A stretch of 51,699 bases of DNA from an uncultured Fusobacteriaceae bacterium (GTDB lineage: Bacteria; Fusobacteriota; Fusobacteriia; Fusobacteriales; Fusobacteriaceae), in assembly GCA_947038515.1 (NCBI GenBank), contig CAMQWJ010000011.1, forward strand, positions 1 to 51,699, in the 5' to 3' direction. This document shows, one piece after another, positions 30,794 to 48,685 of this stretch (the stretch's first letter is position 1; each line of letters opens with the position of its first letter). The position numbers were made by a program, and so were the translations under genes. The notes under the pieces were generated by a model. It made no database searches, was not told the origin of the DNA, and saw only the letters and a list, made by a program, of their open reading frames with translations.

Positions 30794-30801
30794 ATTCCCC
30801 C

Positions 30802-31035: not shown

Positions 31036-31036
31036 C

Positions 31037-31993
31037 TTAATCCCCCTTGTAAAATTCTTTTAAAATGTATTTATTATCTTCATAACCAAGACATTCAGCT
31101 ATTTCAGATAAATATCTTATTTTTTTGCCATCAATTTTCTTTATTTTTATTGTTATTATAATATCAATAGTTTTTGCTATAAAAAAACTAAATTTATCAT
31201 TTTGTGCCATCTGTAGGTAAAGCTCAAATTTGCTTAGCCCACTATAACAATCATCGGCATGTATCGTTGTTATTCCACCAGGATGACCACTATTAAGCCC
31301 CATTAGAAGATCAAATGCTTCTACTCCTCTAACTTCCCCAAATATGATTCTATCTGGTTCTAGCCTCATACAGCTTTTCAAAGCTTGGGTTGGGGTAAAT
31401 ATCCCTGGTATGGGTTTTAAATTTATTTTATTTTTATTTTTGCACTGCAATTCCTCTATTTCCTCAATAAGAATGACTCTTTCTTTAGAGTCAAACAAAC
31501 CTAATAACGCATTAGTAAAGGTGGTTTTACCAGTATTGGTACCACCAACAATTAAAATGTTTTTTTTATTGGTTACACTTTTTTCTAAATAATTATAAAT
31601 TTTTTCATCAATAAAGTTATCATTTAGATAATCTTTCATCTCTTTCACGACAGGAATTTTCTTTCTTATTGAAAATGATGGATTTTCTACAATTGGGGGA
31701 ATTAATCCCTCAAATCGGCTTTTCATAAAAGGTACTGTACCTGTGAGATAAGGCGATTTATCTGTTACACTATCATCTGATAATGTAGCCAGGATTTTCA
31801 TTATTACCATCGTAACATTTGGATCGGCAATAAGTCCTGTATCAGTTTCTTCCTCTGATAAGTTCCCAGCAATATAAATAGTCTTATTTGAATTGACCAT
31901 AATACCTGTAACTTTATCATTTTCCATGAATTGCCATATCCCCATTTTGATAAAACAATCTTTTAAAACTAAGTGTTCTTTTTCATTATTCAT
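31037..31993 (-). CDS. trbB: TrbB/VirB11 conjugation ATPase
   Basis: A 318-aa hexameric secretion ATPase. Walker A is VGGTNTGKTTFTN (~residue 148), the Asp box is VILIEEIEELQ, and RIIFGEVRGVEAFDLLMGLNSGHPGG with TTIHAD form the Walker B and His boxes. It acts at the cytoplasmic base of the secretion channel. Its ATG overlaps the stop of the upstream gene (ATGA). Confidence 0.95.
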   Translation of the reverse strand: MNNEKEHLVLKDCFIKMGIWQFMENDKVTGIMVNSNKTIYIAGNLSEEETDTGLIADPNVTMVIMKILATLSDDSVTDKSPYLTGTVPFMKSRFEGLIPPIVENPSFSIRKKIPVVKEMKDYLNDNFIDEKIYNYLEKSVTNKKNILIVGGTNTGKTTFTNALLGLFDSKERVILIEEIEELQCKNKNKINLKPIPGIFTPTQALKSCMRLEPDRIIFGEVRGVEAFDLLMGLNSGHPGGITTIHADDCYSGLSKFELYLQMAQNDKFSFFIAKTIDIIITIKIKKIDGKKIRYLSEIAECLGYEDNKYILKEFYKGD

Positions 31994-32337
31994 ATTTCTT
32001 CTGCTTGTTTATTCATTATTTTTATGAAATTATTTTTAGAAGTAAATTCAAATTCTTCTTTTCCTAATTTAATATATTTTTCTTTATTTGTTCCTTTATT
32101 ATTTTTAAGTTCTTCTTTAAATATTCCTATCGCAAAAAAAATTATTTCATTTTCAGAAAATTCTATTTGAAAACCTTTAGAGGTTTCTATTATTCCTTTT
32201 CCTATATGATTTTTAATTTTATTATCATTTTTTTTATCTAAGTTTCTTATTTCAAGTTCTATAGCTCTAAGAATTTCTTTTTCTTTTTCCTTTCTTATTT
32301 CTAATTTTTCTTTGATCGTGAGTCTTTTTTCTTCCAT
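31990..32337 (-). CDS. Hypothetical protein between traG and trbB (115 aa)
   Basis: A charged, helical N-terminal half and a strand-rich C-terminal half (GFQIEFSENEIIFFAIGIFKEEL). It is coupled to trbB by an ATGA overlap and lies 5 bp after traG, so it belongs to the transfer operon. I do not recognise the family. Confidence 0.6.
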   Translation of the reverse strand: MEEKRLTIKEKLEIRKEKEKEILRAIELEIRNLDKKNDNKIKNHIGKGIIETSKGFQIEFSENEIIFFAIGIFKEELKNNKGTNKEKYIKLGKEEFEFTSKNNFIKIMNKQAEEI

Positions 32338-32342
32338 TTAAA

Positions 32343-34643
32343 TTACTCCTTTTTTATTTCTTCGGATATTAATTTTTCTATTTCTTCTAAAGAAAAACCA
32401 TCATCATCTTCTTTTGGATCAACAAGAGTTTCTTCAACTTTTGGAATAACAAAAGTTTCTTCTTCCTCTATTTCTTCTTCTACAATTTGATTTGAACTAA
32501 TTTCTTCGTTTTTACCTTTAAAATAATCAGTAATTTTCCGTTTTAATTCAAAAAATTCTTCTTCGTTTAAAGGTTTTTTAATGCTATTATTTTCAAAATA
32601 AATTTTTAATTCTTTTATTGTAAAATTATTGCTTAATTTTGTTACTTGTAATTCTGTTATTATTTCTTCTTCTACAATTTGATTTGATCCATCATCAAAG
32701 TAAAAATTAATATCTTTCATGATTTCTTTTATTTCATTTCTTTTTGTATTTATTTCTTTTTTACTAATTTCTTCAGTAGGTTGCTCTTCTGTTATTCCTG
32801 TATGTATTTCATCTGAAACAGTTGGTACAGCAAAATATGGTTTATACATAAATTCTTTTTCTTTAAAATAAAAGATTTTATTTCCATATATTGGCGACAT
32901 TCCAGCGACAAAAATTATTAGTTTTTCATAAGGAAGGACTCTTACTTCTCCTGGAGTCATGAGTGCCCTTCCTGTAAACGATGTTGATACTGTTTTTTCA
33001 GAAAACAGCCCATTTTTTCTGGATACACTCTTTTGCTCGATAGTCTTTTGACCAAGCATTTTCGAGATCATATCTGGCGTTTGTACATCGTTTGGAGTTA
33101 AATAAATTTGAACATGGCAATTATCTAATACAGAATTTTCTTTGCCATATATTTTTTTTAACTGATTATCCGATTGGGTTATAAGTAAACACTTAAGCCC
33201 ATAACCAGCACAATACGCCATTGCTTGTTCAAATATTTCTAATTTTCCAAGCGACGGAAATTCATCTATTAAAAAAAGAATTTTATTTTTTTCTTTTTTA
33301 GGTGGTGCTTTATAAAAAAGTTTTATTACTGGAGTTATAATTTTTTGAAGTTTAATTTGCCAAATTTCTAAGGTTTTGTTTCCAGAACGCATAGATTCTT
33401 TAGATAGCCTAGCCATTACTTGGGTAAAGATTAATCTTAGTAATGGTCTAGTTTGCGGTATTGAACTTGGTGGAGATACTAAATAGAGTGAAATTTTTTC
33501 ATTCATTAAATCTTCTATTTTAAAACTTGATCTAGCAGAATTTTTAGATATTATAGGGTCTTTAAATATCTGCAATTTAGCTAAACAAGAACTAAGGATT
33601 GAACCTCGCTCTTTGTCTGGGGTAGTTATAAATGTAGAAAATATTGATCCCACCTCTGGGTGTTGTGTTGTATGACTAGAGTCCAAATATATTTTTTTGA
33701 ATAAATCAGGAGTTTCTTGAGCATGATCATATTTTTCTCCTTCAAACTGTTCTCCATCGTCATTTGTGAATATTCCTAAAACTTCACAAGCTGAATCAAA
33801 AAAAGGCTTGTTTGGGTCTGTCATAAACTTCACAACATCCGTCATATTTGCACCCTCTTTAGCGTACTTCACATGTAATACAACACCTATAAGAAGATTA
33901 ATAGCACTACTTGTCCAGTGGTCATCCTCGCCTTTACCTGTAGTGTCTAATAATGTTGTACAAATTTCTCGAACTTCACTTAATTCTTTTGAAGTTTTAA
34001 GTAATATATAATCCAGTGGATTATACATACAGGTAATTCCTGTATCATCAAGGGGTGCAAACATCAAAACTTTTTGTCCTAATACGCGTTTTCGGTAACC
34101 TGCTGTTAAATCCCAGCACTCACCTTTTATATCATTTACTATAATACTGTTTTTCCAGGTGTAAAGAGTTGTTAAAACAGTATTTACTCCCTTCCCCATT
34201 CTAGTTGGAGCCATCATTATTAAATGTTCTGGTCCATTGTGTGTAAGCAGATTTCCTTTTTCATCTCTTCCAAGAACTACACCATTCTCTTTAGAGTATA
34301 ATTCTCTTTTTGTGATCTCCTCTAAATCAGCCCATTTTGCTGTTCCGTGAGAATCAAGAACTTTCTTTTTATAAACGAGTATAAAAGCAGAAGATATTAA
34401 AAAAGTAATTTGTAAAAAATCTTTATTTCTATTTATTGGATTTTTTTTATTTTTAGATTTGAATTTTTTATTCCAAAAATAAAAATTATGGGGAGAATAT
34501 AACCTATACTCACTAATAGTTATGTAATATTTTCCAAGTAATCTTTTGTTTCTTATTTTACTAGCAAAATTATTAGTAAAGTAAGTTGTTAAAATTAAAA
34601 AACTTAGAAATATTAATATTAATTTATTCTTTGATATCTTCAT
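32343..34643 (-). CDS. traG: VirD4/TraG type IV coupling protein
   Basis: A 766-aa protein with two N-terminal transmembrane helices. Walker A is MMAPTRMGKGVNTVL (~residue 142) and Walker B is ILFLIDEFPSLGKL (~455). A Glu/Ser-rich C-terminal region (~170 residues) with the repeated SNQIVEEE motif extends beyond the usual core. Coupling proteins dock the relaxosome and recognise C-terminal signals of secreted proteins, so this is the expected receptor for the shared tail. The acidic C-terminal extension could bind the basic tails. Confidence 0.93.
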   Translation of the reverse strand: MKISKNKLILIFLSFLILTTYFTNNFASKIRNKRLLGKYYITISEYRLYSPHNFYFWNKKFKSKNKKNPINRNKDFLQITFLISSAFILVYKKKVLDSHGTAKWADLEEITKRELYSKENGVVLGRDEKGNLLTHNGPEHLIMMAPTRMGKGVNTVLTTLYTWKNSIIVNDIKGECWDLTAGYRKRVLGQKVLMFAPLDDTGITCMYNPLDYILLKTSKELSEVREICTTLLDTTGKGEDDHWTSSAINLLIGVVLHVKYAKEGANMTDVVKFMTDPNKPFFDSACEVLGIFTNDDGEQFEGEKYDHAQETPDLFKKIYLDSSHTTQHPEVGSIFSTFITTPDKERGSILSSCLAKLQIFKDPIISKNSARSSFKIEDLMNEKISLYLVSPPSSIPQTRPLLRLIFTQVMARLSKESMRSGNKTLEIWQIKLQKIITPVIKLFYKAPPKKEKNKILFLIDEFPSLGKLEIFEQAMAYCAGYGLKCLLITQSDNQLKKIYGKENSVLDNCHVQIYLTPNDVQTPDMISKMLGQKTIEQKSVSRKNGLFSEKTVSTSFTGRALMTPGEVRVLPYEKLIIFVAGMSPIYGNKIFYFKEKEFMYKPYFAVPTVSDEIHTGITEEQPTEEISKKEINTKRNEIKEIMKDINFYFDDGSNQIVEEEIITELQVTKLSNNFTIKELKIYFENNSIKKPLNEEEFFELKRKITDYFKGKNEEISSNQIVEEEIEEEETFVIPKVEETLVDPKEDDDGFSLEEIEKLISEEIKKE

Positions 34644-34923
34644 TTTTATCCAAAAGATTTAGAAGAAAACAACTTAAAGCTCCTGATAAAAAAATACCCA
34701 CAAGACCTTGTGTTAGAAGTGGGAGTATTTCAATATATTTATTAATAACTGGGTAGAATCCTGGTTCTGGTATATTTATTAGCACCAGTATTGATACCAA
34801 TACAAAAATATTGCAGTACCAAGCTATTAAAGTTCTTAGTTTGTGTGAAGTTGACATTATAATTCCAGTAAATACTAATATTGCCAATATTATTAAAAAT
34901 ATAATTACTATTCCTTTTATCAT
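34624..34923 (-). CDS. Small membrane protein before traG (99 aa)
   Basis: Three predicted transmembrane helices (residues ~4-24, ~33-52 and ~65-90). It has an AAAAGGAG site and overlaps the start of traG by 20 bases. Probably a transfer-complex accessory; family not recognised. Confidence 0.6.
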   Translation of the reverse strand: MIKGIVIIFLIILAILVFTGIIMSTSHKLRTLIAWYCNIFVLVSILVLINIPEPGFYPVINKYIEILPLLTQGLVGIFLSGALSCFLLNLLDKNEDIKE

Positions 34924-34937
34924 TTTAGTTCTCCTTT

Positions 34938-36569
34938 TTACCTTTCTTGTCCTTTAGATTTTAATTCTTTTTGGTTTTTTAAATTTTTTAAAAGTGGGTT
35001 TACTTTGGTTTCTATAATATACTCCCCATTTTTATAGTTATTTGTTTCCCATAATTGTCCTTCTCTGTCATATTTTTTTTCAGTACCATGTCTTTTACCA
35101 TTTTTAAACTCTGTTTTATTTGCTATAGTTCCATTCTCATAATATGAGATTGCTTCTCCTTCTTTCTTTTCCTTTTCAAAACTTGTAATAGACTCTATAG
35201 CTCCATTTTCATAGTATATTGATTGTTCTTTTTTTAATCCATTTACTATTTTAATTCTTGAATACATTTTATTTGACATATAATTTTCTTCTTCTATTAA
35301 ATCCTTGTTTTCATTATATTTTTTTAATGTACCCTCAATTTCTCCTTTAAAAAAAGGTGTTTCTATATATCCCTTTTCATGATATACCGTTTCTATACCA
35401 TGTTTTTCCCCATTTCTATACTCTGTTTCTATTTCTTTTTTATTTTTTTCATATTTTGTAACTTTTTGTATTTCTCCAAGTTTATTATATTCAATATATT
35501 CTTTATCTCTTTTTCCATTTGTTAAAGTTTCTTGACTTCTAATATTTCCATTTTCATAAAAAGTTTTTCTTTTTCCATCAACAGGATTATTTCCAAATAT
35601 TTCTTTTAAAACTGCTGTTTTTAAAGCTCCATTTTCATGATATATTTTTTTATATCCATCTAAACTTTTATCAACTGATTTTTCTAATATAGATTCGTAA
35701 TTTTTCATCATTCTATCTGAAATTTTTTCTGCCTCTGCAACAACTCTATAAATAGTATCTGGATCATCTTTTAATAAACTGATCCAACCATTAATGTAAC
35801 TTTGATGACTCTCAAAGTGTTTCGCATTTGTTTCTACGCCAAGTTCTTTTCCTGTGTAGATAGAGGCTAATTCTACTCTTAATTCTTCCTCTGCATACTC
35901 TGTTTTATTTTCTAAATTTGAAAATCTATTTAATCTTGTTTCATGTCCTGTGGAATGTCCCATTTCATGAGTTAAAGTACTTATTAACCACTCTTCACTT
36001 ATAAAAGCTTCCTTTTCTGGAAGAACTATTATATCTTTCATAGGGGAATAGTAAGCACGATCTTGAGGTTCATATAAAATTTTTACTTCTGATGATTTTT
36101 CTAAATTTTCTATAATATCTGAATATTTTCTTATCTCTAAAGGTTTCGGTGGTATATATGGTTCTAGCCCCTCGATTTGTTCCCCATTGAAGAGGGTAAA
36201 AGTATTTATATATGGAGATTTTAGTTGAATTTCTTTTTCAACTTCCTTACCGTTTACAATTTCTTTTATTTTTTTACTAAATATCCATTTTTCACACATT
36301 ACACCTTTAGAACCTTTTTTTACAGTCAGTCCTTTAGCTTGTGCCTGTTTAAAGGTTAGCCATCTAGGGTCTTTGTAATCACTGTATAAGGCTGTTATTT
36401 CTAGGTTTAATTTATTTCCACCCTTATATTTTGTATTTTCATTTAATCCATTTCTTGGCGTTTGATTATCATTCCACCGTTTAATGAATTTTAAACCTTC
36501 TTTGTTTAAACCATCTATAATTTGATTAGTGATTTTTTCTCTATTCTCTTTTATTTTTTCACTAATCAT
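34938..36569 (-). CDS. ArdC-like antirestriction protein fused to MORN-2 repeats, with shared tail
   Basis: A 543-aa protein starting at ATG 36569, inside the stop of the small gene upstream. Residues 1-110 match the ArdC ssDNA-binding domain (WLTFKQAQAKGLTVKKGSKG). A metalloprotease-like HEMGH follows (TLTHEMGHSTGHE). From ~310 to 520 come about eight MORN-2/YwqK repeats (YENGxI...xNGKR), then KVNPLLKNLKNQKELKSKGQER. ArdC proteins shield incoming single-stranded DNA from restriction, and ArdC of pSa is reported to travel with the DNA. The MORN array and tail are additions I have not seen described for ArdC. Confidence 0.85.
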   Translation of the reverse strand: MISEKIKENREKITNQIIDGLNKEGLKFIKRWNDNQTPRNGLNENTKYKGGNKLNLEITALYSDYKDPRWLTFKQAQAKGLTVKKGSKGVMCEKWIFSKKIKEIVNGKEVEKEIQLKSPYINTFTLFNGEQIEGLEPYIPPKPLEIRKYSDIIENLEKSSEVKILYEPQDRAYYSPMKDIIVLPEKEAFISEEWLISTLTHEMGHSTGHETRLNRFSNLENKTEYAEEELRVELASIYTGKELGVETNAKHFESHQSYINGWISLLKDDPDTIYRVVAEAEKISDRMMKNYESILEKSVDKSLDGYKKIYHENGALKTAVLKEIFGNNPVDGKRKTFYENGNIRSQETLTNGKRDKEYIEYNKLGEIQKVTKYEKNKKEIETEYRNGEKHGIETVYHEKGYIETPFFKGEIEGTLKKYNENKDLIEEENYMSNKMYSRIKIVNGLKKEQSIYYENGAIESITSFEKEKKEGEAISYYENGTIANKTEFKNGKRHGTEKKYDREGQLWETNNYKNGEYIIETKVNPLLKNLKNQKELKSKGQER

Positions 36570-36678
36570 TTTTGTACTCTTCAAACTCTTTATTATCTAA
36601 ATCCTCTTCTTTAATTCCATCTTCATAAGTAACTATTCCTTTAGCTTTTTTAAAATCTTCTATTTCTTTAAGTGTCAT
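36562..36678 (-). CDS. Small acidic protein upstream of the ArdC gene (38 aa)
   Basis: ATG at 36678 with AAGGAG before it; reads MTLKEIEDFKKAKG, then an acidic stretch, and stops inside the ArdC start. The coupling and acidity suggest a leader or small partner of the ArdC-like protein. No family recognised. Confidence 0.45.
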   Translation of the reverse strand: MTLKEIEDFKKAKGIVTYEDGIKEEDLDNKEFEEYKND

Positions 36679-36738
36679 CTAAAATCTCCTTATCTTCCTT
36701 AGTTCTTTGTTAGAAATACGAATGTAACCATATTTCAT
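36679..36738 (-). pseudogene. Relic of the resolvase 5' end
   Basis: Translates MKYGYIRISNKEL and soon stops. The first nine residues equal those of the serine recombinase at 14535, and the four-base spacing to the tail gene upstream is the same as at 14530/14535. The block 36679-36802 is therefore a copy of the zeta-2/resolvase junction. Confidence 0.8.
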
Positions 36739-36742
36739 ATAT

Positions 36743-36901
36743 CTACCTTCCCTTCCCTTTAGAGTCTAATTCTTTTTGTTTCTTTAATGATTTTAAAAGT
36801 GGGTTTTCCACTTTTGAATTAGTTGTTTGTTCATTTTTTAATTCTTTCCAAACTTTTTCCACTTCTTCTTTTATTTTTTCAGATTTCATTTGTTCTTTCA
36901 A
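36743..36901 (-). CDS. 52-aa protein consisting mainly of the shared tail
   Basis: TTG start at 36901 with AAAGGAG six bases before it; an in-frame ATG follows at 36889. About 28 charged residues precede VENPLLKSLKKQKELDSKG, ending KGR. It is either a remnant of a larger tailed protein whose catalytic part was lost, or a small secreted protein. Its end is joined to a resolvase 5' relic, showing the tail was copied from a zeta-2-like locus. Confidence 0.6.
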   Translation of the reverse strand: MKEQMKSEKIKEEVEKVWKELKNEQTTNSKVENPLLKSLKKQKELDSKGKGR

Positions 36902-36913
36902 TTCTTTCTCCTT

Positions 36914-37309
36914 TTAGTTATTTACAATTTCATATAATTCTTTTTCTTTTAATTTGTTATAAATTTCATCTAATTCGATTATATTTTTATCCTTTAATTT
37001 TTTTTCTATTTCTGGTTTTAAAAATAAAATTTCTGATTTTTTTTCTTCTATCTTTAATCGAATTAGAATTATTTCAATTTTTGAAATTTTAAACTTTTTT
37101 AAAGTATTTTTATCTTTTGAAGAATCTAAAACTAAAATTTCTCTTATTTTTTCATTTTTAAAATTAATTTTTTCAATTAACATATTTAATAAAGAAAATA
37201 AAGTATAAATTAATAATATTAGTAGAATTACTAATAATAATAAGGCAATAATATATGTAGAACCATATATTATTTTGTCCATTATTTCTTGATACATTTT
37301 CTTCCCCAC
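36914..37309 (-). CDS. Membrane protein of the transfer region (131 aa)
   Basis: One N-terminal transmembrane helix (residues ~14-38, very Leu/Ile-rich) followed by a Lys/Glu helical cytosolic part. It lies between trbL and the tail gene in the leftward series. No family recognised. Confidence 0.55.
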   Translation of the reverse strand: MGKKMYQEIMDKIIYGSTYIIALLLLVILLILLIYTLFSLLNMLIEKINFKNEKIREILVLDSSKDKNTLKKFKISKIEIILIRLKIEEKKSEILFLKPEIEKKLKDKNIIELDEIYNKLKEKELYEIVNN

Positions 37310-37321
37310 CTTTTAAACATA

Positions 37322-37357
37322 AACTTACTAATCAAAAGTTTTTTTGATTAGTAAGTT
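37322..37357. terminator. Hairpin after trbL and AAAAT pentamer run
   Basis: 16-bp perfect arms (37322-37337 with 37342-37357) around a four-base loop. Directly beside it, at about 37357-37390, lies a run of the pentamer attttattttatttt that includes the trbL stop codon; such runs are length-variable. Confidence 0.7.
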
Positions 37358-37383
37358 ATTATTTTATTTTATTTTATTTTATT

Positions 37384-38310
37384 TTATTTTTTTCCTTTTG
37401 AGGCATTTTTCATTTTTTCCCCTCCATCGCCTCCACTTTTCATCTCTCCAATAACTTTTCCGACATCTTGTTTTACTTGTTGAGCCATACTAGAAGCTTT
37501 ACTACCTGCTGCACCTAAAACAGCCAGTCCTACTACATCATTATCACTAGCAGAACCACTAGTGAAAGAATTAGCCATACTAGAAGCTTTTGTTAAAAGG
37601 AACATCATACCAGCTAAAACAGCTACATAACTAATAGCATTTGTTGGTGTAACTTCTTTTGCTCCATTTATCAAGATACCTGTCCCCACCAATGGTTTAG
37701 TCATTGTTTGTAATACAAATTTTCCTATCAATGTTACTATCATTATTTTTATATTTTGAGAAATAATTAAGTTAAAAACTTTATCCCCCATAAAACTAGT
37801 AAATTTAAGCATTTTAAATGGAATTAAAATAATTGCTAAATTTACTAGCAAATAATATTCTAAATAGGCTAAAAATATCATTAAAGCCATAAATACCAAA
37901 ACAATTGCCCCAAATGCCCATATTATTATATTGAGATATGTTTTTGGAGAGAACCCCTTTACTAAATCCCATATTTTTTGTAATTGTGATAATCCATCCT
38001 CTATTATCGCACTCGGACCAACAGCCTGTACTGTCCCACCTAAAGCAATATCTACAAATTGTAAAAATGTATCGTTTATTTGTTTTGTTATTTCTTGATA
38101 ATTTTGGATTGCAAAAAACAACCAAAAGTAAGTAACTAATTTCCAAAAAACAATATTCATTGGTTCATCTTCTGGTTTTCTTTTAACTAATGACCATAAT
38201 ATTTCTATTGTTAACAAAGATACCAATAATATTAATGCAGTTGGTCTTAAGTTTTTGCTTATTGCTATAAAATTCAATTCTAGTTCACTCATTACTGTTG
38301 TTAAATCCAT
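37384..38310 (-). CDS. trbL: TrbL/VirB6 inner-membrane channel protein
   Basis: A 308-aa polytopic protein with five to six hydrophobic segments between residues ~20 and 240. LVNLAIILIPFKMLKFTSFMGDKV and the Gly/Ser/Ala-rich hydrophilic C-terminus (SSMANSFTSGSASDN) are typical of TrbL/VirB6. It forms part of the inner-membrane pore. A terminator-like hairpin precedes it at 38332. Confidence 0.88.
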   Translation of the reverse strand: MDLTTVMSELELNFIAISKNLRPTALILLVSLLTIEILWSLVKRKPEDEPMNIVFWKLVTYFWLFFAIQNYQEITKQINDTFLQFVDIALGGTVQAVGPSAIIEDGLSQLQKIWDLVKGFSPKTYLNIIIWAFGAIVLVFMALMIFLAYLEYYLLVNLAIILIPFKMLKFTSFMGDKVFNLIISQNIKIMIVTLIGKFVLQTMTKPLVGTGILINGAKEVTPTNAISYVAVLAGMMFLLTKASSMANSFTSGSASDNDVVGLAVLGAAGSKASSMAQQVKQDVGKVIGEMKSGGDGGEKMKNASKGKK

Positions 38311-38331
38311 ATTTCTCCTTTTTTAGTAAAT

Positions 38332-38365
38332 AAAAAAACCTTAGAAATTAATCTAAGGTTTTTTT
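38332..38365. terminator. Terminator/attenuator between the lipoprotein gene and trbL
   Basis: AAAAAAACCTTAGA pairs with TCTAAGGTTTTTTT around a six-base loop; functional in both directions. It could reduce expression of the downstream half of the transfer operon. Confidence 0.75.
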
Positions 38366-38416
38366 ATTTCAAGTATTTTTTCCAAATATTATTTGGATTG
38401 TTAATAATACAAAGAC

Positions 38417-38716
38417 TTAATAATTTCTTCTTGGAATTGTTCTTGGAGTATTGGTTTTTTTAACCCTCATTCTTAACGAACTATAAATCTCATCCCATTC
38501 ATAATGTTCTTTTTTTGCCTCAACATTTCCTTTTTTCATAGCTAACTCTAATTTAGCTTGTGTTTCTTCATACTCTTTTCTTGCTTTTTCATCATTTTTA
38601 TCAACCATTTTAAGAAGAACTTCTCTTTTATAGTCATAAGTTGTTAGCTCTACTTTTGGTGTTCCACAACCTACTAAAAATCCAAACGACAATAATAGCA
38701 ACACATTTTTTTTCAT
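38417..38716 (-). CDS. Lipoprotein of the transfer region (99 aa)
   Basis: ATG at 38716 with GGGGG before it. Signal peptide with lipobox LVGC (Cys at ~17), then a charged helical domain. In Trb operons the small lipoprotein after TrbJ is TrbK (entry exclusion) or TrbH; either fits by position, not by sequence. Its last ten residues TPRTIPRRNY are identical to the end of TrbJ because of a 50-bp direct repeat. Confidence 0.65.
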   Translation of the reverse strand: MKKNVLLLLSFGFLVGCGTPKVELTTYDYKREVLLKMVDKNDEKARKEYEETQAKLELAMKKGNVEAKKEHYEWDEIYSSLRMRVKKTNTPRTIPRRNY

Positions 38717-38760
38717 AAAATACCCCCTCTGTCTTTTTTTATATTGTACTACAAAAATGA

Positions 38761-38810
38761 TAATAATACAAAGACTTAATAATTTCTTCTTGGAATTGTT
38801 CTTGGAGTAT
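38761..38810. repeat. 50-bp direct repeat at two gene ends
   Basis: 38402-38451 and 38761-38810 are identical. Each covers the last ~33 coding bases and the stop codon of trbJ or of the lipoprotein gene. Recombination between them would delete the lipoprotein gene. Confidence 0.9.
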
Positions 38811-39507
38811 CTGTTTTTTCTGTTTTTATCCAATTTTTAAAGTCTTCATTATCTATTTCTTCCTGTGTTATTTTAGCTTGTTGTGTTAAAGCTAAAACTC
38901 TTAGATTTTCAGCAGTCAAGTTTTCTATTCTTGCCAACTTGTTATTTTGCATTTCTGCAATTTTTTTATTAGCAATGGCTATTTGTAAATTTCCTTTCGC
39001 CCCATCTGTTTTCCCCATGAAAGCTAATGATTTTGTTTCACTAGCAATATTTCCAGCAGTTTTTGAAGCCAATTTTAAAGAATCTTTGATGGTTGTATTT
39101 ACCTGCCCAGACATATTTTCTACTTCTCTCAAAAGTTGCATATTATCCATGTTTTTGTAATTTTCAAAGTTTTGGAAAGTACGGTCAAAATTCTGTTCAA
39201 ATTTTGCCGAATCACGAATTATGGATTTCGAGCCATCATGGATAGCTTGTAAATCCTTTAGAGTTTTTGCTAATTGTGCATTTTCTTCCCCAAGTAACAT
39301 TCCACCCCAATTTTCGAGATTGGTTAAATCATTTTGTAATTGCAAGGCTTGTGTAATTCTCATTTGAGTGGTTTCAACGGCATTTTTTGCTGTGTTAATC
39401 AAATTGGCATGAGAATTATACAACGCTTTTCCACTTTCATAAACTGCCATTGCTGGAAAAGTCGTAGCTCCCAAAAATAAAAATAATAAAACTATATTTT
39501 TTTTCAT
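38776..39507 (-). CDS. trbJ: TrbJ/VirB5 pilus-tip/assembly protein
   Basis: A 243-aa protein with a signal peptide ending PAMA (residue ~21), then long helices. NLENWGGMLLGEEN and AQLAKTLKDLQAI are typical of P-type TrbJ. It is exported to the periplasm and found at the pilus tip. The last ten residues and 15 bases beyond match the lipoprotein gene downstream. Confidence 0.85.
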   Translation of the reverse strand: MKKNIVLLFLFLGATTFPAMAVYESGKALYNSHANLINTAKNAVETTQMRITQALQLQNDLTNLENWGGMLLGEENAQLAKTLKDLQAIHDGSKSIIRDSAKFEQNFDRTFQNFENYKNMDNMQLLREVENMSGQVNTTIKDSLKLASKTAGNIASETKSLAFMGKTDGAKGNLQIAIANKKIAEMQNNKLARIENLTAENLRVLALTQQAKITQEEIDNEDFKNWIKTEKTDTPRTIPRRNY

Positions 39508-39572
39508 ATCACTACTCCTTAATAATTTTTTTTTACCTTAGATTATTCTATTTTCAATGTCCTAATTCCTAT

Positions 39573-40712
39573 TTATTTTTGATATGGCTCTAAAATTAAA
39601 TCTTTGTCTATCATTACACCAACCCCAAATCCAGGTCTAACAGTTAATGTCGGTTGTACATTTAAAATTTTATCCGTATATCTTATACCTACTGCCATCG
39701 CTTGTTCTCCTGCTCCTGCTCCTGCTTCTGATTGCCAACTATTGTCGTCGTCATCATTGCCGGTAAGAGCACTTCCAGCCCCTAGAACTGCTGATATTAG
39801 TACACTACCAATCACTTTATCCATGTGGTTATCTACTTTATCGTAGATACCACTTTGTCCAATGTCATCAACTGCTAACATTGTTCCTAAATTAATAGAT
39901 TTTTGGTTTGGAAATGTTATTCTATTAAATACAGCTTGTATTCTTTCTTGTCCGAAACTAATATTTGAATTATATTTTCCAAGTATTTTACTACCGCCTG
40001 GAATTAATAAAATTCTTCCAGTCTTAGAGTCGTAAACATCTTCTTTTATGAAGCCTGTTATCATACCAGGATTGTCAGAATTTACCCCTGTTTGCAAAGT
40101 AATTGGAATTACTGTTCCAGCTTTTACTTCATAAATACTTAAAGCATTTATTAGTGGATTTAAAAGTATAAAGTTATCTGTAGAAGCACTTTTTAAAAAT
40201 TCTGCTTTCTTTTTTTGTAAGTTCGGATCATCTTCCATGCCTGGAGGAATTAAATTTGAATATAGTTCGCTATTTTGATTTGCTACCTGTATTTGTTGTT
40301 TTTGTTCAAAATTAAATAAATTACTGGTATTGGGTTGAAGAAGAGCATTAGCTCTAATGATTTGTCTTCTTTCTTCATCGCTTAATTCAGCTTGTTTTGG
40401 TTCAAAACTTTCATAGTTTTGTTGATATTGTATTTCTGCTAAAACAGATTCTTCCTCTTGTTTTAATCTTTCTATTTCTTGTTTTACAATATTTTCTTCT
40501 GAAATTGCTATTAATTCTTTATGTTTTTGAGAAGTCGACATTACACTATCTATTTTCTCTTTAGATTTTTCTTTTTCTTTTTTTTCCCCACTAGAGAAAA
40601 TAAAAGGTATTGAAATTATAAGAAAGATAACCCCTAAGATAATTCCAATGTTTTTGTAATTAAAACTTCCATTGTTTGGCAGAATATCTTTTATTTTTTG
40701 GTTTACACTCAT
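39573..40712 (-). CDS. trbI: TrbI/VirB10 scaffold protein
   Basis: A 379-aa protein with one transmembrane helix near residues 23-40, a charged/Gln-rich periplasmic linker, and a C-terminal VirB10 beta domain (EVKAGTVIPITLQTGVNSDN, then SVLISAVLGAGSAL). It spans both membranes and links the ATPases to the outer core. The stop codon of trbG is adjacent. Confidence 0.93.
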   Translation of the reverse strand: MSVNQKIKDILPNNGSFNYKNIGIILGVIFLIISIPFIFSSGEKKEKEKSKEKIDSVMSTSQKHKELIAISEENIVKQEIERLKQEEESVLAEIQYQQNYESFEPKQAELSDEERRQIIRANALLQPNTSNLFNFEQKQQIQVANQNSELYSNLIPPGMEDDPNLQKKKAEFLKSASTDNFILLNPLINALSIYEVKAGTVIPITLQTGVNSDNPGMITGFIKEDVYDSKTGRILLIPGGSKILGKYNSNISFGQERIQAVFNRITFPNQKSINLGTMLAVDDIGQSGIYDKVDNHMDKVIGSVLISAVLGAGSALTGNDDDDNSWQSEAGAGAGEQAMAVGIRYTDKILNVQPTLTVRPGFGVGVMIDKDLILEPYQK

Positions 40713-40713
40713 A

Positions 40714-41466
40714 TTATCGTTTCCAATTTTTGTTAAATATCATTATTTGTTTTTTTCCCATAGCGAGTACTCCTTCTTTGAATACTCGATCAACTACTAT
40801 GACTTTTCTACCATTTTTTTTCATTTTAGTTCTTGTCATAACGAGAACTAATTTACCTTCTTTTTTTAAATAAAAAGAAGGTATATCTTTATCTTTTTCA
40901 GATAATTCTATTATCGTTTTGTCCCCATCGTCAAAAATGTTAGAAGGCGACCAAGAATAACTTTTTCGCCATTTGTATTTGAAGTTAAGTTCTTCTATGT
41001 TAGAGCTGTTTAATGATACTTCTTCATCTAATATTCTTTTTTGCTCTAACTGTAATGTTACTTCATCTTCTGGATAGATAAATTCTAAAACAGAGTTGTA
41101 ATATTTTTCATTTGATTTGGGAGCTACTAAAGTAAAAAAGTAATCTCTTATATTCGTAGTAATGAATAAAGAAGTTTTCAAATCATCTTCTTTAGGTTTA
41201 ATTATAAGTTGATTTCCAATCATTTTCGTTTCCCAAAACGGTTGATCTGCCACTGTAACTGACATTAATGATTCAGCTTTTCCAAAAATTATCGCTGTCC
41301 CATTTAAGGGTTTTGAATATATTTGATATATCTTATCAGGAAGATATACCTGTTTTTTATATTCTTTCGTTTTTGCTTCTTTTATTAAATCTATTTTTGT
41401 ATTTTTTCCAAAAGATAGACTTGAAATAATTAGCATAAATATTATTCCTGTTTTTTTTAAGTTCAT
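40714..41466 (-). CDS. trbG: TrbG/VirB9 outer-core protein
   Basis: A 250-aa protein with a signal peptide (residues ~1-20), the N-terminal IYSKPLNGTAIIFGKAESLMSV region and a C-terminal YKWRKSYSWSPSNIFDDGDKT beta domain as in VirB9. It forms the outer-membrane ring with TrbI. Confidence 0.92.
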   Translation of the reverse strand: MNLKKTGIIFMLIISSLSFGKNTKIDLIKEAKTKEYKKQVYLPDKIYQIYSKPLNGTAIIFGKAESLMSVTVADQPFWETKMIGNQLIIKPKEDDLKTSLFITTNIRDYFFTLVAPKSNEKYYNSVLEFIYPEDEVTLQLEQKRILDEEVSLNSSNIEELNFKYKWRKSYSWSPSNIFDDGDKTIIELSEKDKDIPSFYLKKEGKLVLVMTRTKMKKNGRKVIVVDRVFKEGVLAMGKKQIMIFNKNWKR

Positions 41467-41486
41467 TCTAATTTTTCTCCTTTTAT

Positions 41487-42170
41487 TTATAGCTTTTCTT
41501 TTATTTGAGTAAAATCTACTATTAACATTCCAAGAGGATTGAATAATAAGTGATTTTTTTCTTTGATTTCTACAAATTTAATTGTAAAAATCCCCATATA
41601 ATTTTCTTCTAATATAATTTTTCCATTTTTATCAGATGTTCTCTCAATCCATCTTATTTGATAAGAGTTATTTTCTAGTTTGATTCCTGTATTTTGGATT
41701 ACTTCTACTGTTTCTTTCAACTTTATTTTTTCTTTATATCCAGATTCAATTAAGTATCTGTCTATTTTAGCTGACGAACTTTGTGTTAAGAAACTCAAAA
41801 TTTCTTCAGTATTTTTTGAATATAGTTCAAGATTTGGGGTTAAGAACCTAGTTTTATTTATAAAGTTAAAAAGAAAATATACAATTTCTTCATCAGTAAC
41901 ATTTTTTCTTATATCTGTTCCAAGATTATTAGCTGTCCCTAAAACATTATAATTGTTTCCTTCTTTCTCTATAATATAAGTTTGAACTTTGTTGTTTGAG
42001 CTTATATTAATAATTCCAAAAACTAAAAAACAACTTATCAAGCATGAAGAAAAAGCTACTTTTCTCCAATTGTTTGAATTTATTTGCATATCAAGGAATT
42101 TATCTCTAGGTAATTTTTCTTTATTTGTTTGTAAAGCAATTTTATTTTTAATTTTCCAATTAAAAATCAT
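41487..42170 (-). CDS. trbF: TrbF/VirB8 inner-membrane protein
   Basis: 227 aa: a cytosolic tail, a transmembrane helix (residues ~38-57) and a periplasmic VirB8 domain (YQIRWIERTSDKNGK, then YMGIFTIKF). Its start overlaps the trbC stop by one base. Confidence 0.9.
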   Translation of the reverse strand: MIFNWKIKNKIALQTNKEKLPRDKFLDMQINSNNWRKVAFSSCLISCFLVFGIINISSNNKVQTYIIEKEGNNYNVLGTANNLGTDIRKNVTDEEIVYFLFNFINKTRFLTPNLELYSKNTEEILSFLTQSSSAKIDRYLIESGYKEKIKLKETVEVIQNTGIKLENNSYQIRWIERTSDKNGKIILEENYMGIFTIKFVEIKEKNHLLFNPLGMLIVDFTQIKEKL

Positions 42171-42478
42171 TAGAACATTACTCCACTAGTTAACCCTAAC
42201 CAGTCTGTAATTATTTCAGCTTTAAATATAACAAAAGACCCTATTACTGAATATAATCCTATCTTTAAAGAACCTTCTGGTCCTCTTCCAGTTATACCAA
42301 CTAAAATCATAGATACTAAACTTAAAATGAAACCGTATCTACCGATTTCTTTTGCAACATCAACAACTTTATCAAAAGTTGTTGCTATTCCCAGTCCCCC
42401 ATCTGATCCAAATGCACCTAAACTTAAAACCAAAAATGATAGTACCATCATTTTTTTCCTTCCATTTTTTCTTTCCAT
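42170..42478 (-). CDS. trbC: TrbC/VirB2 major pilin
   Basis: 102-aa prepilin with GGGAGGAG before its ATG. A signal peptide is followed by two hydrophobic helices split by GRGPEG, the pilin pattern. It would be processed by TraF (27778). It is the first gene of the leftward transfer operon; the promoter must lie at 42479-42600, next to the 41-bp recombination-site-like repeat. Confidence 0.88.
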   Translation of the reverse strand: MERKNGRKKMMVLSFLVLSLGAFGSDGGLGIATTFDKVVDVAKEIGRYGFILSLVSMILVGITGRGPEGSLKIGLYSVIGSFVIFKAEIITDWLGLTSGVMF

Positions 42479-42499: not shown

Positions 42500-42540
42500 T
42501 TTTTTAATGGTACTACTTTTAAAAATGTAGTTACCATTTA
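42500..42540. repeat. 41-bp inverted-repeat copy A (candidate recombinase site)
   Basis: Exactly the reverse complement of 47415-47455. Internally it has imperfect arms, GGTACTAC and GTAGTTACC, around a ~10-bp AT spacer, the look of a tyrosine-recombinase core site. It lies between trbC and a tyrosine recombinase gene. Confidence 0.85.
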
Positions 42541-42605
42541 ATTTCAATTTTATATAGATATATGTTAATATTTTTTAACAGAATACTAATACTGGAGGTT
42601 TGATT

Positions 42606-43195
42606 GTGAAAAAAAAAAAGAAGTTTATTTTTTACAAAAAAAAGATATTAAAAAAATAAGAGAATATCTCTTAAAAAAAGATTTAATTGTTATGTTATGT
42701 TTTATTAACATTGGCTTAAATACAGGTTTACGAGTTAGTGATTTATTAGAATTAAAATTTGAAGATTTGAATGATAATAGAATTTTGAGAATAATTGAAA
42801 TAAAAACGCAAAAAATTAAGCTGATAAAATTTAATACGATTTGTGTTAATAGTTTTGAAATACTAAAAAAATATTACATGAAAAAAGGGATTCCAGCAGA
42901 AGAATTTTTGTTCAAATCTTTAAATAGAGAATTTATAAAAAAAAGAATTTTCAAAAAAATAAGCTATTCTGGTATAAAAAAATATTTTACACTTTTAAAA
43001 AATGAACTTAAATTAGAGTATCCAATTGGGACACACTCTTTGAGAAAAACATTTGGAAAAAGAATTTATGAAAATGAAAGTGATCTAGGATTAGTTATGA
43101 AATTATTAAATCATAGTTCAGAAGGAGTTACTCTACGATATATTGGGATTGATGACGAGTTAATTATTAAATGCTATGATAATCTTATAATATAA
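42606..43195 (+). pseudogene. Tyrosine recombinase with out-of-frame start at an A11 tract
   Basis: GTG at 42606 has GGAGG seven bases before it but is followed by eleven A and then stops early. The recombinase frame begins right after the tract (EVYFLQKKDIKKIREYLL) and runs to 43195. The catalytic residues are visible: Arg in TGLRVSDLL, H-x-x-R in GTHSLRKT, His in LLNHSSEG and Tyr in RYIGI. One A more, or two fewer, would restore a ~197-aa XerC/Cre-like enzyme. A shorter in-frame ATG exists at 42692, without a ribosome-binding site. This could be phase variation, transcriptional slippage, inactivation or sequencing error. Confidence 0.75.
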
Positions 43196-43269: not shown

Positions 43270-43728
43270 TTAATTTTTAGAAATATTTTTTAACACCAAG
43301 TATTCCTCAAAAGTTAGATTTTCTAAAGAATTTTTATTAAATTCTTTTTTTATTATAACCATTAGGTCTAAATTTTTTTGGTTATAAATTTTTAATAGTT
43401 CCATTATCTGTTCTTTAGAGATTTCTATAATTTTTTTTCTTTTTTCAAAGAAAATTTTACCCTTATTTTTTAAAATTTCTTTTTGATCTAATGTTAATTT
43501 TTTAAAATTTATTAAGAAACCTATTAAAGTATCTTTTTCTTCATCTTCTAAATTTAACATTTCAAAAAGAACCCCTAACTGTATCAATTTATGAACTCTC
43601 TTTTTTCTTTCTTGATTTTTTGTATAATTTTCTTCTTTTTTATTAATTTTATTGATTTTATTATTTAAAATTTTAAACTTATTTTTTTTTTCTTCCAATT
43701 CTTTTAAAAGATTTTCTTTATCTTTCAT
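43270..43728 (-). CDS. TraD-family (PF06412-like) conjugation accessory protein
   Basis: 152 aa with a coiled-coil N-terminus and the segment RKKRVHKLIQLGVLFEML, which matches the conserved RxxRxxxLIQLGxL signature of small TraD/TraC relaxosome proteins in Ti-type and other mobilisation regions. It overlaps the 3' end of the relaxase gene by 11 bases. Likely role: accessory DNA-binding in the relaxosome. Confidence 0.7.
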   Translation of the reverse strand: MKDKENLLKELEEKKNKFKILNNKINKINKKEENYTKNQERKKRVHKLIQLGVLFEMLNLEDEEKDTLIGFLINFKKLTLDQKEILKNKGKIFFEKRKKIIEISKEQIMELLKIYNQKNLDLMVIIKKEFNKNSLENLTFEEYLVLKNISKN

Positions 43729-46012
43729 TATCTTCTTCTTCTCCTTTATATCCCATTGATTTTATCTGTTTTCCTGTGTGAAGTTTTTTCAAATTCACAC
43801 TATTATTTGAATTTTTAAATTTAGACTGTAAAAAATCTACTTTTAAAACTTTTAATTTTTTTATTATGTTCATTTTATCTGAAAGTTGTAGAATTTTATT
43901 TTCTACAACTTTCAAGGAGTCATTAGTTTCAGTTAGCAGCTCCTTTAATTTCACTATTTCTTCTAATTTTATTTCTTTCTTTTCTTTAATTTCATCTTTA
44001 GGTTTTAGTTCTCTATTTTTTATATTTTCTTCTTTTACTATTTTCATTTTTTGTAAATTTTCAATAATATTTAATTCTAACAATTTGTAAGAATTATTAT
44101 TATTTAGTAATAGTTTTTTAAAGTATTCTATTTCTTTAGGTTCTGTAGCCTCTTTTAGTTTTTCTTTCAATTCTTTTTCTATTATTTGAATTTGAACTTT
44201 ATCTTCTTTTCCTTTTTCTATTGTTGCAAAAAGATTTTTTAATATTTCTTTATTTTTTTCTAATTTATTAGAAAGATCAAAAGATAGTATTTTATTTTGT
44301 AGCTCTTTTCTTATAATATCTACAATTGGTTTTAGCTCATCTTTTTTCTCTTTTTGATTCTTTATCTCATTAAATAAACTATCTAAATAATCTTTCTTTT
44401 CATCTTTTGAGAGTTCTAATTTAAAAATATTATTTTCAATAGTTCCAATGTCAATTAGTTCTATCTTCCCCCATCGCTCATTCAGAATATTAAGAGATTT
44501 ATCATAAGATTTTCTTAAAACATCCTCTTTAGCTACTATTTTTCCTAAAAATTTATCTGAATTAAATTCTTCAAGTTCCCTATTTAATTCAGATATCTTT
44601 ATTTTTTCAATATCTGTCATAAAACTCTTTTTAGTAATATTTTCTAATTCTTTTTCTATCTTAGAAATTCTACCATTTGATACAGTGTCAGAAGCAATTT
44701 TTCTAATGTTTTCTTCTAACATATTGTTTTTTATATATTTAATTTTAGTTATTGTTTTATCAACAATAACTAAATTATTTACAAGTAAATCTAAGAGTTC
44801 AATTTTCTTAGGTTGAACACTTTGATTTTCTTCTTTTATTATTTTTATTTTTTGTATATTTTCAATAATGTTCAGTTCTGAAATTCTGTAAGAATTATTA
44901 TTATTTTGTAATAGTTTTTTAAAGTATTCTATTTCTTTAGGCTCTGTAGCCTCTTTTAGTTTTTCTTTCAGCTCTTTTTCTATTATTTGAATTTGAACTT
45001 TATCTTCTTTTCCTTTTTCTATTGTTGCAAAAAGATTTTTTAATATTTCTTTATTTTTTTCTAATTTATTAGAAAAATCAAAAGGTAATATTCTCTCTAT
45101 TTCCTCTGTATGTTCTCTTCTTATTTCTCTAATAATATTATACTTTTCTTCATTTCCTATTAGTGAATTAAACAGTTCTTTTTTTGCGATTAGATTTTCT
45201 TCTGTAAAGTTTTTCATTTTAAAAGAATAAACTTCATCTTTTAATTTTTTTATTTCTTTTGATATTTTAAAAAGCTCTAGCTTTTCAAGTTCAACTAAAG
45301 TTTTTGTATTATCATTACTATATAGTAAATAGCCTTCAATATTAATTGGTACTCTATCTAGTTTTTCAGCTAATATAAAATCCCCTTTTTTTATTGCTTC
45401 TTTTCTTTGATCCTTCAAGCTATCAGAATTAACTCTTTCACTTATATTGTTTTTTTCTAATGATTTATTTATTATATTTTCAAACTGTTTTCTAATTATG
45501 ATTAATTTTTCTTTTTTATTCCAGGTATCATCTTTCTGTGTTCCACCAAGTTCCTTTTTATTTGCATTATATCTCTTAAAAAAATCTTGATAGTTTCTAT
45601 TTATTCCATCTTGTTTTCTTGTTGAAAACAGTATATGGGCATGAATATTTCCTACTCCATCTTCATTAAAACTTTTATGAAGAGAGTAAGAGCATGGGAA
45701 GTCATTACCTATTATTTCATTTATAAATTCTTGTGTTATTTTTATATTTTCTTCATCATTTAATTCGTTCGGAAGTGTTAAAGTCATTTGTCTTGCTTTT
45801 CTTCTATTAGCACCTTCAAATTCATCAGCACATTTCCAAAAAAATCTTGGGTTATTCTCTGCAAATTTAGGAATATTTAAAGCTTCTTTGTGAATTAATT
45901 CTTCACTTTTTTTACCATTTTTATATTTTCCTTCTCGAAAATCATACAAAAATTTACCTTCAACATTTCTGTCTGCTTTTACATTATCCATTTCTAATCT
46001 GAAAAAAGCCAT
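43718..46012 (-). CDS. mobA: MobA/MobL-family (MOBQ) relaxase
   Basis: 764 aa; ATG at 46012 follows TAAGGAGG. The N-terminal ~230 residues are a MobA/MobL domain: FRLEMDNVKADRN, then GANRRKARQMTLTLPNEL and GNIHAHILFSTRK with the metal-binding His-x-His. It nicks at oriT, stays bound to the 5' end and is led through the channel. The C-terminal ~500 residues are coiled coil and contain an ~85-residue segment present twice (267 codons apart). The last 35 residues are basic and end EEDNER, compatible with a secretion signal. Confidence 0.88.
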   Translation of the reverse strand: MAFFRLEMDNVKADRNVEGKFLYDFREGKYKNGKKSEELIHKEALNIPKFAENNPRFFWKCADEFEGANRRKARQMTLTLPNELNDEENIKITQEFINEIIGNDFPCSYSLHKSFNEDGVGNIHAHILFSTRKQDGINRNYQDFFKRYNANKKELGGTQKDDTWNKKEKLIIIRKQFENIINKSLEKNNISERVNSDSLKDQRKEAIKKGDFILAEKLDRVPINIEGYLLYSNDNTKTLVELEKLELFKISKEIKKLKDEVYSFKMKNFTEENLIAKKELFNSLIGNEEKYNIIREIRREHTEEIERILPFDFSNKLEKNKEILKNLFATIEKGKEDKVQIQIIEKELKEKLKEATEPKEIEYFKKLLQNNNNSYRISELNIIENIQKIKIIKEENQSVQPKKIELLDLLVNNLVIVDKTITKIKYIKNNMLEENIRKIASDTVSNGRISKIEKELENITKKSFMTDIEKIKISELNRELEEFNSDKFLGKIVAKEDVLRKSYDKSLNILNERWGKIELIDIGTIENNIFKLELSKDEKKDYLDSLFNEIKNQKEKKDELKPIVDIIRKELQNKILSFDLSNKLEKNKEILKNLFATIEKGKEDKVQIQIIEKELKEKLKEATEPKEIEYFKKLLLNNNNSYKLLELNIIENLQKMKIVKEENIKNRELKPKDEIKEKKEIKLEEIVKLKELLTETNDSLKVVENKILQLSDKMNIIKKLKVLKVDFLQSKFKNSNNSVNLKKLHTGKQIKSMGYKGEEEDNER
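44041..45093. repeat. Two copies of a ~245-bp repeat inside the relaxase gene
   Basis: About 44041-44285 and 44849-45093 are nearly identical with an offset of 801 bp (267 codons), both encoding NKLEKNKEILKNLFATIEKG onward. Recombination between them would remove 267 codons in frame. Confidence 0.85.
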
Positions 46013-46039
46013 CTTTAACACCTCCTTATTTTCTGTCTT

Positions 46040-46258
46040 TACACAAATTCCCAAGTGTGGGAAGTCCAAGTTTTAATATAATTAAAATTTGGTTGTGAAG
46101 GGTTGTTGTTTTCGTCCTTAGGACACACCTTAGTGTCCCCCTTTTTACGAGTAAAAAGCACGGAGTATCTAAAGTTTAATGAAATTAAAATTTAGATACT
46201 TGTAACCGTGCCTTCCTTAACACAGTAATTTTTGCTATTCGCAAAAATATTGGTTGAG
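46040..46258. other. oriT: Putative origin of transfer (oriT)
   Basis: Directly upstream of the relaxase start lies a chain of inverted repeats: TTCCCA/TGGGAA (~46047), GGACAC/GTGTCC (~46120-46137), CTTTTTAC/GTAAAAAG (~46140-46157), a long cruciform opening GCACGG and closing CCGTGC (~46158-46210) with TATCTAAA/TTTAGATA inside, and ATTTTTGC/GCAAAAAT (~46229-46250). No gene fits here. The nic site cannot be named from sequence alone. Confidence 0.65.
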
Positions 46259-46735: not shown

Positions 46736-47131
46736 CTAATTGACCATTGTCTCTAATTCTAATTGACCATTGTCAGAATACTGTTTATATATTCCCCATA
46801 TTTTACCATTTTTATAATTTAATTCTATCTTTAACTTACCATTTTTATTATAAAATTTAACTACTCCTTCTCGTATACCATTTTTATAATTTATTTCCAT
46901 CTTTGGCTTACCACTCTCATCATAGGCTTTAGCTACCCCTTCTAGTTTACCGTATTTATAATTTTCTTCGGTTTTTAATTGACCATTCTCATAATAACTT
47001 TTATATATTCCATTATAAGGTGTTGTACTGTCTATTTCAAACTTTACTCCATTTCGTTCCACTAAATTATCTACTTTTTTTCCACAACCTATTAACAATA
47101 GCAAGCATAATAATGCTATTAACTTTTTCAT
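46736..47131 (-). CDS. MORN-2 (YwqK-like) lipoprotein, truncated by a 23-bp duplication
   Basis: A 131-aa protein with a signal peptide and lipobox LIGC (Cys at 16), followed by four to five MORN-2 repeats (YYENGQLKTEENYKYGKLEG and so on). The 23-bp segment acaatggtcaattagaatta+gag is duplicated in tandem at the 3' end, shifting the frame into an early stop. Without it the frame would run on through LEFEGNYKNGKLKTKI to a stop at 46689. It resembles the MORN array of the ArdC-like protein; surface or entry-exclusion roles are speculative. Confidence 0.75.
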   Translation of the reverse strand: MKKLIALLCLLLLIGCGKKVDNLVERNGVKFEIDSTTPYNGIYKSYYENGQLKTEENYKYGKLEGVAKAYDESGKPKMEINYKNGIREGVVKFYNKNGKLKIELNYKNGKIWGIYKQYSDNGQLELETMVN

Positions 47132-48450: not shown

Positions 48451-48454
48451 AGAT

Positions 48455-48483: not shown

Positions 48484-48513
48484 CATTTTATTAATATATA
48501 TAAGGGGGTATTG

Positions 48514-48678: not shown

Positions 48679-48685
48679 TGAAAAA

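What the first reader, a model, noticed from the sequence alone, without database searches (positions are those of the whole stretch)
42606..42692. Recombinase start disrupted at an A11 tract: slippage switch
A GTG with a strong ribosome-binding site is put out of frame by a run of eleven A directly after it; the intact recombinase frame resumes beyond. Length change or RNA-polymerase slippage would turn the enzyme on in a minority of cells, which suits a switch enzyme.
Basis: partly seen in the sequence, partly recalled or inferred. Interest (0 to 1): 0.7.

Follow-up and report, generated by a model that had tools for sequence, protein, structure and literature searches.

The report
Out-of-frame start of plasmid DNA-flipping enzyme
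On a conjugative plasmid of a Fusobacterium relative, the gene for an enzyme that probably flips a 4.9-kb piece of plasmid DNA next to the DNA-transfer genes is put out of frame by a run of eleven A's at its start, so it can only be made through slippage; the flip element is a real family trait, but the A-run is unique to this plasmid.

Summary
GGAGG (42594-42598), GTG (42606-42608) and A11 (42609-42619) are there. The GTG frame stops after 17 codons. The intact tyrosine-recombinase frame (to 43195) has no ATG/GTG/TTG start before 42692, inside the conserved domain. One extra A in the mRNA, or a -1 ribosomal shift at A_AAA_AAG, joins them. A homopolymer reading error is unlikely but not excluded: eight other genic A/T runs of 11 or more in this genome are all in frame, and the contig closes with a 55-nt overlap typical of short-read assembly. 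A programmed switch is not supported: of 94 family members checked, only this one lacks an upstream in-frame start. If real, the A11 most likely lowers dosage in every cell (a C. rodentium A11 gives about 20% +1 slippage), with tract-length mutation as a possible ON/OFF layer. Related Fusobacterium elements carry inverted sites at the same genes, with the relaxase block in either orientation, and a homologous recombinase locus is inverted exactly at its sites between two sister genomes. Inversion on this plasmid and slippage are both inferred.

The parts
42594..42598 (+). Shine-Dalgarno GGAGG, 7 nt before the GTG
   Evidence: sequence
42606..42608 (+). GTG start codon, only start with a ribosome-binding site; its position relative to the conserved E-V motif is within the range of the homologues' starts
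42609..42619 (+). A11 tract that puts GTG out of frame with the recombinase
42614..42620 (+). A_AAA_AAG heptamer in the GTG frame (possible -1 ribosomal slip site)
   Evidence: sequence; the heptamer as slip site: PMC5009743; no significant 3' structure
42606..42659 (+). 17-codon zero-frame peptide MKKKKKFIFYKKKILKK, stop TAA
   Evidence: sequence
42620..43195 (+). Tyrosine recombinase frame after the tract (Phage_integrase PF00589, E 1.3e-24); R42, H143, R146, H169, Y178 (numbered in the 195-aa frame from 42608) invariant in the family alignment
42692..43195 (+). First ATG-started in-frame ORF (167 aa); lacks the conserved first helix of the catalytic domain and has no SD
42500..42540 (+). 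Left arm of a perfect 41-bp inverted repeat with an imperfectly palindromic core (TGGTACTAC..GTAGTTACCA); putative recombination site, 21 bp before the virB2 start codon
47415..47455 (-). Right arm of the same inverted repeat; the only other copy in the genome
42541..47414 (.). 4874-bp segment between the arms (recombinase, TraD-like, relaxase, MORN lipoprotein); proposed invertible DNA
   Evidence: inversion itself inferred
43270..43728 (-). TraD-like small transfer protein (PF06412)
43718..46069 (-). MobA/MobL (MobQ-like) relaxase
46736..47131 (-). MORN-repeat lipoprotein
42170..42478 (-). TrbC/VirB2-like pilin (weak Pfam match, below cut-off), first gene of the T4SS operon running left, directly outside the left arm
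   Evidence: synteny
28334..42170 (-). Rest of the conjugative type IV secretion operon (VirB8, VirB9, VirB10, VirB6/TrbL-like, VirD4, VirB11 and VirB4-like ORFs, by their sequence and by order compared with annotated plasmids)
   Evidence: annotated homologous order

Best explanation
The gene is a catalytic-domain-only tyrosine recombinase (DNA invertase) of a Fusobacteriaceae family, and its probable substrate is the inverted-repeat pair 42500-42540 / 47415-47455, whose recombination would flip a 4.9-kb relaxase/TraD/recombinase block next to the virB2-led conjugation operon. In this plasmid the A11 directly after GTG is most likely a real, recent, lineage-specific one-nucleotide length change that takes the enzyme out of frame. 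Full-length enzyme is then made only from slipped decoding: mainly +1 transcriptional slippage on A11, with a smaller share from -1 ribosomal slippage at A_AAA_AAG. The consequence is a lowered recombinase dose in all cells and hence rare inversion; tract-length mutation during replication can restore or remove full expression heritably. Shown: sequence, frames, family, repeats, uniqueness of the tract, inversion at the sites of homologues. Inferred: inversion on this plasmid, its effect on transfer genes, and slippage.
For: Frames and RBS. The recombinase is otherwise intact: PF00589 E 1.3e-24, catalytic residues invariant, and residues 5-28, right after the tract, match the family majority as often (12/24) as the rest (81/162), so no decay beyond the tract. 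A homopolymer reading error is made less likely by 8 of 8 other genic A/T runs of 11 or more in frame, including what read as UvrC, MnmE, ScpA, DXR and NAD kinase, and by a 55-nt exact end overlap typical of short-read de Bruijn assembly. A run of the same length, A11, in C. rodentium tssM1 gives mRNAs with 10-15 A and about 20% +1 frameshift (PMC4256274). Avoidance of long runs in this DNA (1 vs 6.5 expected) is the pattern read as selection against slippage and hypermutability in PMC1088944. Inversion switch: perfect 41-bp inverted repeat; inverted sites beside the recombinase at 26 or more of 29 in 8 of 20 loci, versus 5 of 60 control positions; L040 versus L042: an 806-bp recombinase segment inverted exactly between its sites with flanks collinear at 88-91% identity; relaxase block toward virB2 in the window and L049, away in L036.
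Against: No reads or RNA were available, so neither A11 nor slippage is measured. No close relative of this gene exists in the searched collections, so the ancestral tract is unknown. The slippage rate is taken from enterobacterial RNA polymerase. In-frame A11-A12 runs in genes that read as housekeeping genes suggest slippage here is tolerable, hence perhaps modest. Promoter scores do not show that orientation controls virB2 in this window.
Confidence: 0.5

Rival explanations
1. Simple loss of function: a recent slipped-strand indel inactivated the recombinase, locking the segment in the assembled orientation; residual slippage is biologically irrelevant.
For: Unique among 94 family members; no conserved stimulatory elements; A11 is hypermutable; a degraded family copy exists elsewhere (G058:C1:1140666, several stops).
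Against: No other damage in 195 codons; an A11 elsewhere gives about 20% frame restoration (PMC4256274), so complete inactivation is not expected.
Confidence: 0.22
2. Sequencing or assembly error: the true majority tract is an in-frame length and the gene is ordinary.
For: Homopolymers are the commonest indel errors; the gene is otherwise intact; every homologue has an in-frame start.
Against: 8 of 8 other genic runs of 11 or more are in frame and the assembly looks short-read, where such errors in the consensus are rare (own knowledge).
Confidence: 0.15
3. DNA-level contingency locus: the tract length itself phase-varies between ON and OFF alleles under selection, giving two nested stochastic switches (tract length gates the invertase, the invertase gates transfer genes).
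For: A11 at the very 5' end of the gene, where length change is cleanly ON/OFF; a switch enzyme; long runs otherwise avoided; another plasmid recombinase of the family carries A8 and A9 at its start, in frame (L054).
Against: No allele variation seen because no second isolate exists; not conserved in the family.
Confidence: 0.08
4. Programmed -1 ribosomal frameshifting at A_AAA_AAG, as in dnaX and IS elements, sets the enzyme level.
For: The canonical heptamer is in the right frame and the SD lies 15 nt upstream; 5' SDs stimulate -1 shifting (PMC5009743).
Against: No significant 3' structure (z -0.6); site not conserved in homologues; the SD is already explained as the initiator.
Confidence: 0.05

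Closest known systems
Citrobacter rodentium tssM1 (PMC4256274)
   Same: A run of exactly eleven A puts the downstream part out of frame; +1 product in about 20%, mRNAs with 10-15 A
   Different: There the tract is near the 3' end and both products are needed for function; here it is at the start codon and the zero-frame product is a 17-residue peptide; slippage here is not measured
Slippage-rescued poly(A) genes and IS elements (PMC1088944)
   Same: Disrupted ORF with a long A run at which transcriptional slippage restores the frame; mobile-element recombination gene
   Different: IS cases rest on recurrence or conservation among elements; this one is a single case
FimB/FimE-type and other small tyrosine invertases (phase variation by promoter inversion, e.g. 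PMC6083910)
   Same: About 200-aa catalytic-only tyrosine recombinase beside inverted repeats
   Different: Segment is 4.9 kb and carries the recombinase and conjugation genes; no inversion observed on this plasmid
R64-type shufflon (inversions on conjugative plasmids)
   Same: Site-specific inversion on a conjugative plasmid affecting transfer functions
   Different: The shufflon swaps pilin C-termini between multiple sites (own knowledge); here one pair of sites separates relaxase block and T4SS operon
F. polymorphum pKKCOM1330A (NZ_CP084160) and Fusobacterium sp. S17M_Sa_57 contig
   Same: Recombinase, inverted-site pair around relaxase block, virB2 operon directly outside one site
   Different: Recombinase lies outside the segment and starts in frame; site sequences differ

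Membership tests
Tyrosine recombinase superfamily (PF00589) | Conserved catalytic R...HxxR...H/W...Y | tested here: met
   R42, H143, R146, H169, Y178 invariant in A1; PF00589 87 bits vs cut-off 27.1
DNA invertase / phase-variation recombinase | Inverted recombination sites flanking a segment next to the gene | tested here: met
   41-bp perfect inverted repeat, only two copies in the genome; adjacent sites in 8 of 20 loci vs 5 of 60 controls
DNA invertase / phase-variation recombinase | Both orientations exist | tested here: inconclusive
   Seen for a 48-49% identical homologue (L040 vs L042) and suggested by opposite relaxase orientation in L036 vs L049 and the window; not for this plasmid itself
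Invertible promoter switch | Promoter inside the segment drives the flanking operon in one orientation only | tested here: inconclusive
   Good TTGCAA-17-TATAAT toward virB2 in L036 (1.5% of shuffles reach it); none above chance in the window. Only 21 bp lie between the arm and virB2, so a promoter next to virB2 must lie in or beyond the arm
Transcriptional-slippage gene | Run of at least 9 A/T at which +1 or -1 restores a long ORF | tested here: met
   A11, +1 restores 195 codons
Transcriptional-slippage gene | Heterogeneous mRNA and full-length product | not testable with these tools
   needs RNA or protein
Programmed (conserved) slippage | Tract and frame arrangement conserved among homologues | tested here: not met
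   only 1 of 94 lacks an upstream in-frame start
Programmed -1 ribosomal frameshifting (dnaX type) | A_AAA_AAG, 5' SD and 3' stem-loop | tested here: not met
   heptamer and SD present, 3' structure not above shuffles (z -0.6)
Homopolymer contingency locus | Tract-length variation among cells or isolates | not testable with these tools
   no second isolate, no reads; no close relative found

The most novel reading that the evidence does not exclude
A nested stochastic switch on a conjugative plasmid: slippage or length change at A11 gates the invertase, which in turn flips the relaxase block against the T4SS operon and so decides whether cells can transfer the plasmid.
Probability: 0.12. Interest if true: 0.75.

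Novelty: new variant of a known kind. Interest (0 to 1): 0.42.

Why it matters
If inversion next to virB2 sets expression of the transfer operon, conjugation in Fusobacterium relatives would be phase-variable by DNA inversion, which my searches of the held library did not find reported. The A11 would then be a natural dosage limiter on the enzyme and a handle to test how slippage sets switching rates. Practically, it also warns against annotating such recombinases as pseudogenes or truncating them to the internal ATG.

Tried and rejected
No nucleotide-level relative of the recombinase in plasmids, and no protein relative by single-sequence scan of genome or viral contigs, so the ancestral tract length could not be read. 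No Rfam family or tRNA in the window. Internal start at ATG 42692: rejected as the main start because it removes the conserved first helix of the domain (PF00589 match begins at residue 8; residues 5-28 conserved) and has no SD. Start codon upstream in the recombinase frame: none between TAA 42587 and the tract. Promoter comparison between the two orientations of the window: no significant difference, so no ON/OFF label is claimed for the assembled orientation. Inverted copies of the F. polymorphum region in other plasmids: none to compare. Literature searches gave slippage and inversion precedents but no report of this element.

Full report
What is there. GGAGG (42594-42598), a 7-nt spacer, GTG (42606-42608) and eleven A (42609-42619) are followed by GAAGTTTATTTT. 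From GTG the frame gives 17 codons and stops at 42657-42659. The recombinase frame is open from after the stop at 42587 to 43195, but has no ATG, GTG or TTG before ATG 42692. One extra A, or a -1 ribosomal shift, joins the GTG to it.

Is it an error? It cannot be excluded without reads. Three indirect facts speak against it. The genome (1.78 Mb, 23 contigs) has only 18 distinct A/T runs of 11 or more. Eight of the others lie inside genes and all are in frame, including ones that read as UvrC, MnmE, ScpA, DXR and NAD kinase (the names are from the translated sequence, not from a family search). The contig ends share an exact 55-nt overlap, which fits a closed circle from a short-read k=55 assembly; such data seldom misread A11 in the consensus (own knowledge). 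Long A/T runs are also avoided in this DNA: 1 run of 11 or more in the window against 6.5 +/- 2.2 under a first-order Markov model, and 14 of 9 or more against 34. That is the pattern which Baranov et al. (PMC1088944) attribute to selection against slippage and hypermutability.

What the gene is. The 195-residue product is a catalytic-domain-only tyrosine recombinase (PF00589, E 1.3e-24), 42-48% identical to the 15 relatives aligned in A1, which come from Fusobacteriaceae chromosomes and Fusobacterium plasmids. The catalytic residues R42, H143, R146, H169 and Y178 are invariant in the alignment. The codons immediately after the tract are as conserved as the rest (12/24 against 81/162 majority matches), so the gene has not decayed. 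The internal ATG 42692 would delete the first conserved helix. All homologues start 3 to 13 codons before the conserved E-V motif, which fits the GTG.

Is the slippage programmed? Probably not. Of 94 family members whose starts I could inspect, only this one lacks an in-frame start upstream. The zero frame does hold the heptamer A_AAA_AAG with an SD 15 nt upstream, but no significant 3' structure (z -0.6). The nearest precedent is Citrobacter rodentium tssM1, where a run of exactly eleven A yields mRNAs with 10 to 15 A and about 20% +1 product (PMC4256274). By analogy this gene would still be made at a fraction of its rate, in every cell.

What the enzyme probably acts on. A perfect 41-bp inverted repeat lies at 42500-42540 and 47415-47455; no other copy exists in the genome. 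Its core is an imperfect palindrome of about 29 bp. Between the arms lie the recombinase, a TraD-like gene, a MobA/MobL relaxase and a MORN lipoprotein. The left arm ends 21 bp from the start of the virB2-like gene that heads the conjugative T4SS operon.

Related elements. F. polymorphum pKKCOM1330A has the same parts: virB2, site, relaxase block, site, recombinase. In L049 and the window the relaxase points toward virB2; in pKKCOM1330A it points away. F. hwasookii carries a shorter version in which the sites flank only the recombinase, directly upstream of virB2. Inverted matches of 26 or more of 29 beside the recombinase occur in 8 of 20 loci against 5 of 60 control positions. In two sister genomes (L040, L042) an 806-bp segment holding the recombinase is inverted exactly between its sites while the flanks stay collinear at 88-91% identity. 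That is comparative evidence, not an experiment, that this family inverts DNA.

What is not shown. No inverted orientation of this plasmid has been seen. The promoter test was inconclusive for the window: pKKCOM1330A has a good promoter facing virB2 inside the segment, the window has none above chance in either orientation (region scan: 45 promoter-like sites against 41 +/- 6 expected). So I do not call the assembled orientation ON or OFF.

Verdict. A confirmed observation, a partly supported interpretation. The tract is most likely a real, recent, plasmid-specific frame disruption of an invertase gene whose expression now depends on slippage. The larger and better supported finding is the invertible relaxase/T4SS junction. 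In the held library I found inversion on conjugative plasmids and invertible promoters on conjugative elements, but no report of this element.

Noticed in passing
window 1-55 and 51645-51699: Exact 55-nt overlap of the contig ends: the window is probably a complete circular plasmid of about 51,644 bp.
   Followed up: partly
window 48987-49061: 22-nt direct repeats (AGGCTACCAAATGAAGAAGATA) upstream of the Rep3 initiator gene (49462-50679), likely replication iterons.
   Followed up: no
window 47539-48855: Diverged copies of a 58-119-nt element at 47539, 47728, 48177 and 48737, between the right arm and rep, without an Rfam match.
   Followed up: no
window 44024-44306 and 44825-45107: 283-nt direct repeat, 92% identical, inside the relaxase gene.
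   Followed up: no
L040 9078-9890, L042 8973-9781: In two sister Fusobacteriaceae genomes the recombinase gene itself is the inverted segment.
   Followed up: partly
L054 15984-16598 (CP053469): The F. nucleatum plasmid recombinase upstream of its T4SS operon starts with in-frame A8 and A9 runs.
   Followed up: no
G058:C1:1140666-1141201: A degraded copy of the recombinase with several stops.
   Followed up: no
window 14535-15158, 13643-14530, 15209-15670, 24638-25399: By their sequence, a serine-recombinase-like gene, a zeta-toxin-like kinase, a PemK/MazF-like gene and a Fic-like gene; not checked against a family library.
   Followed up: no
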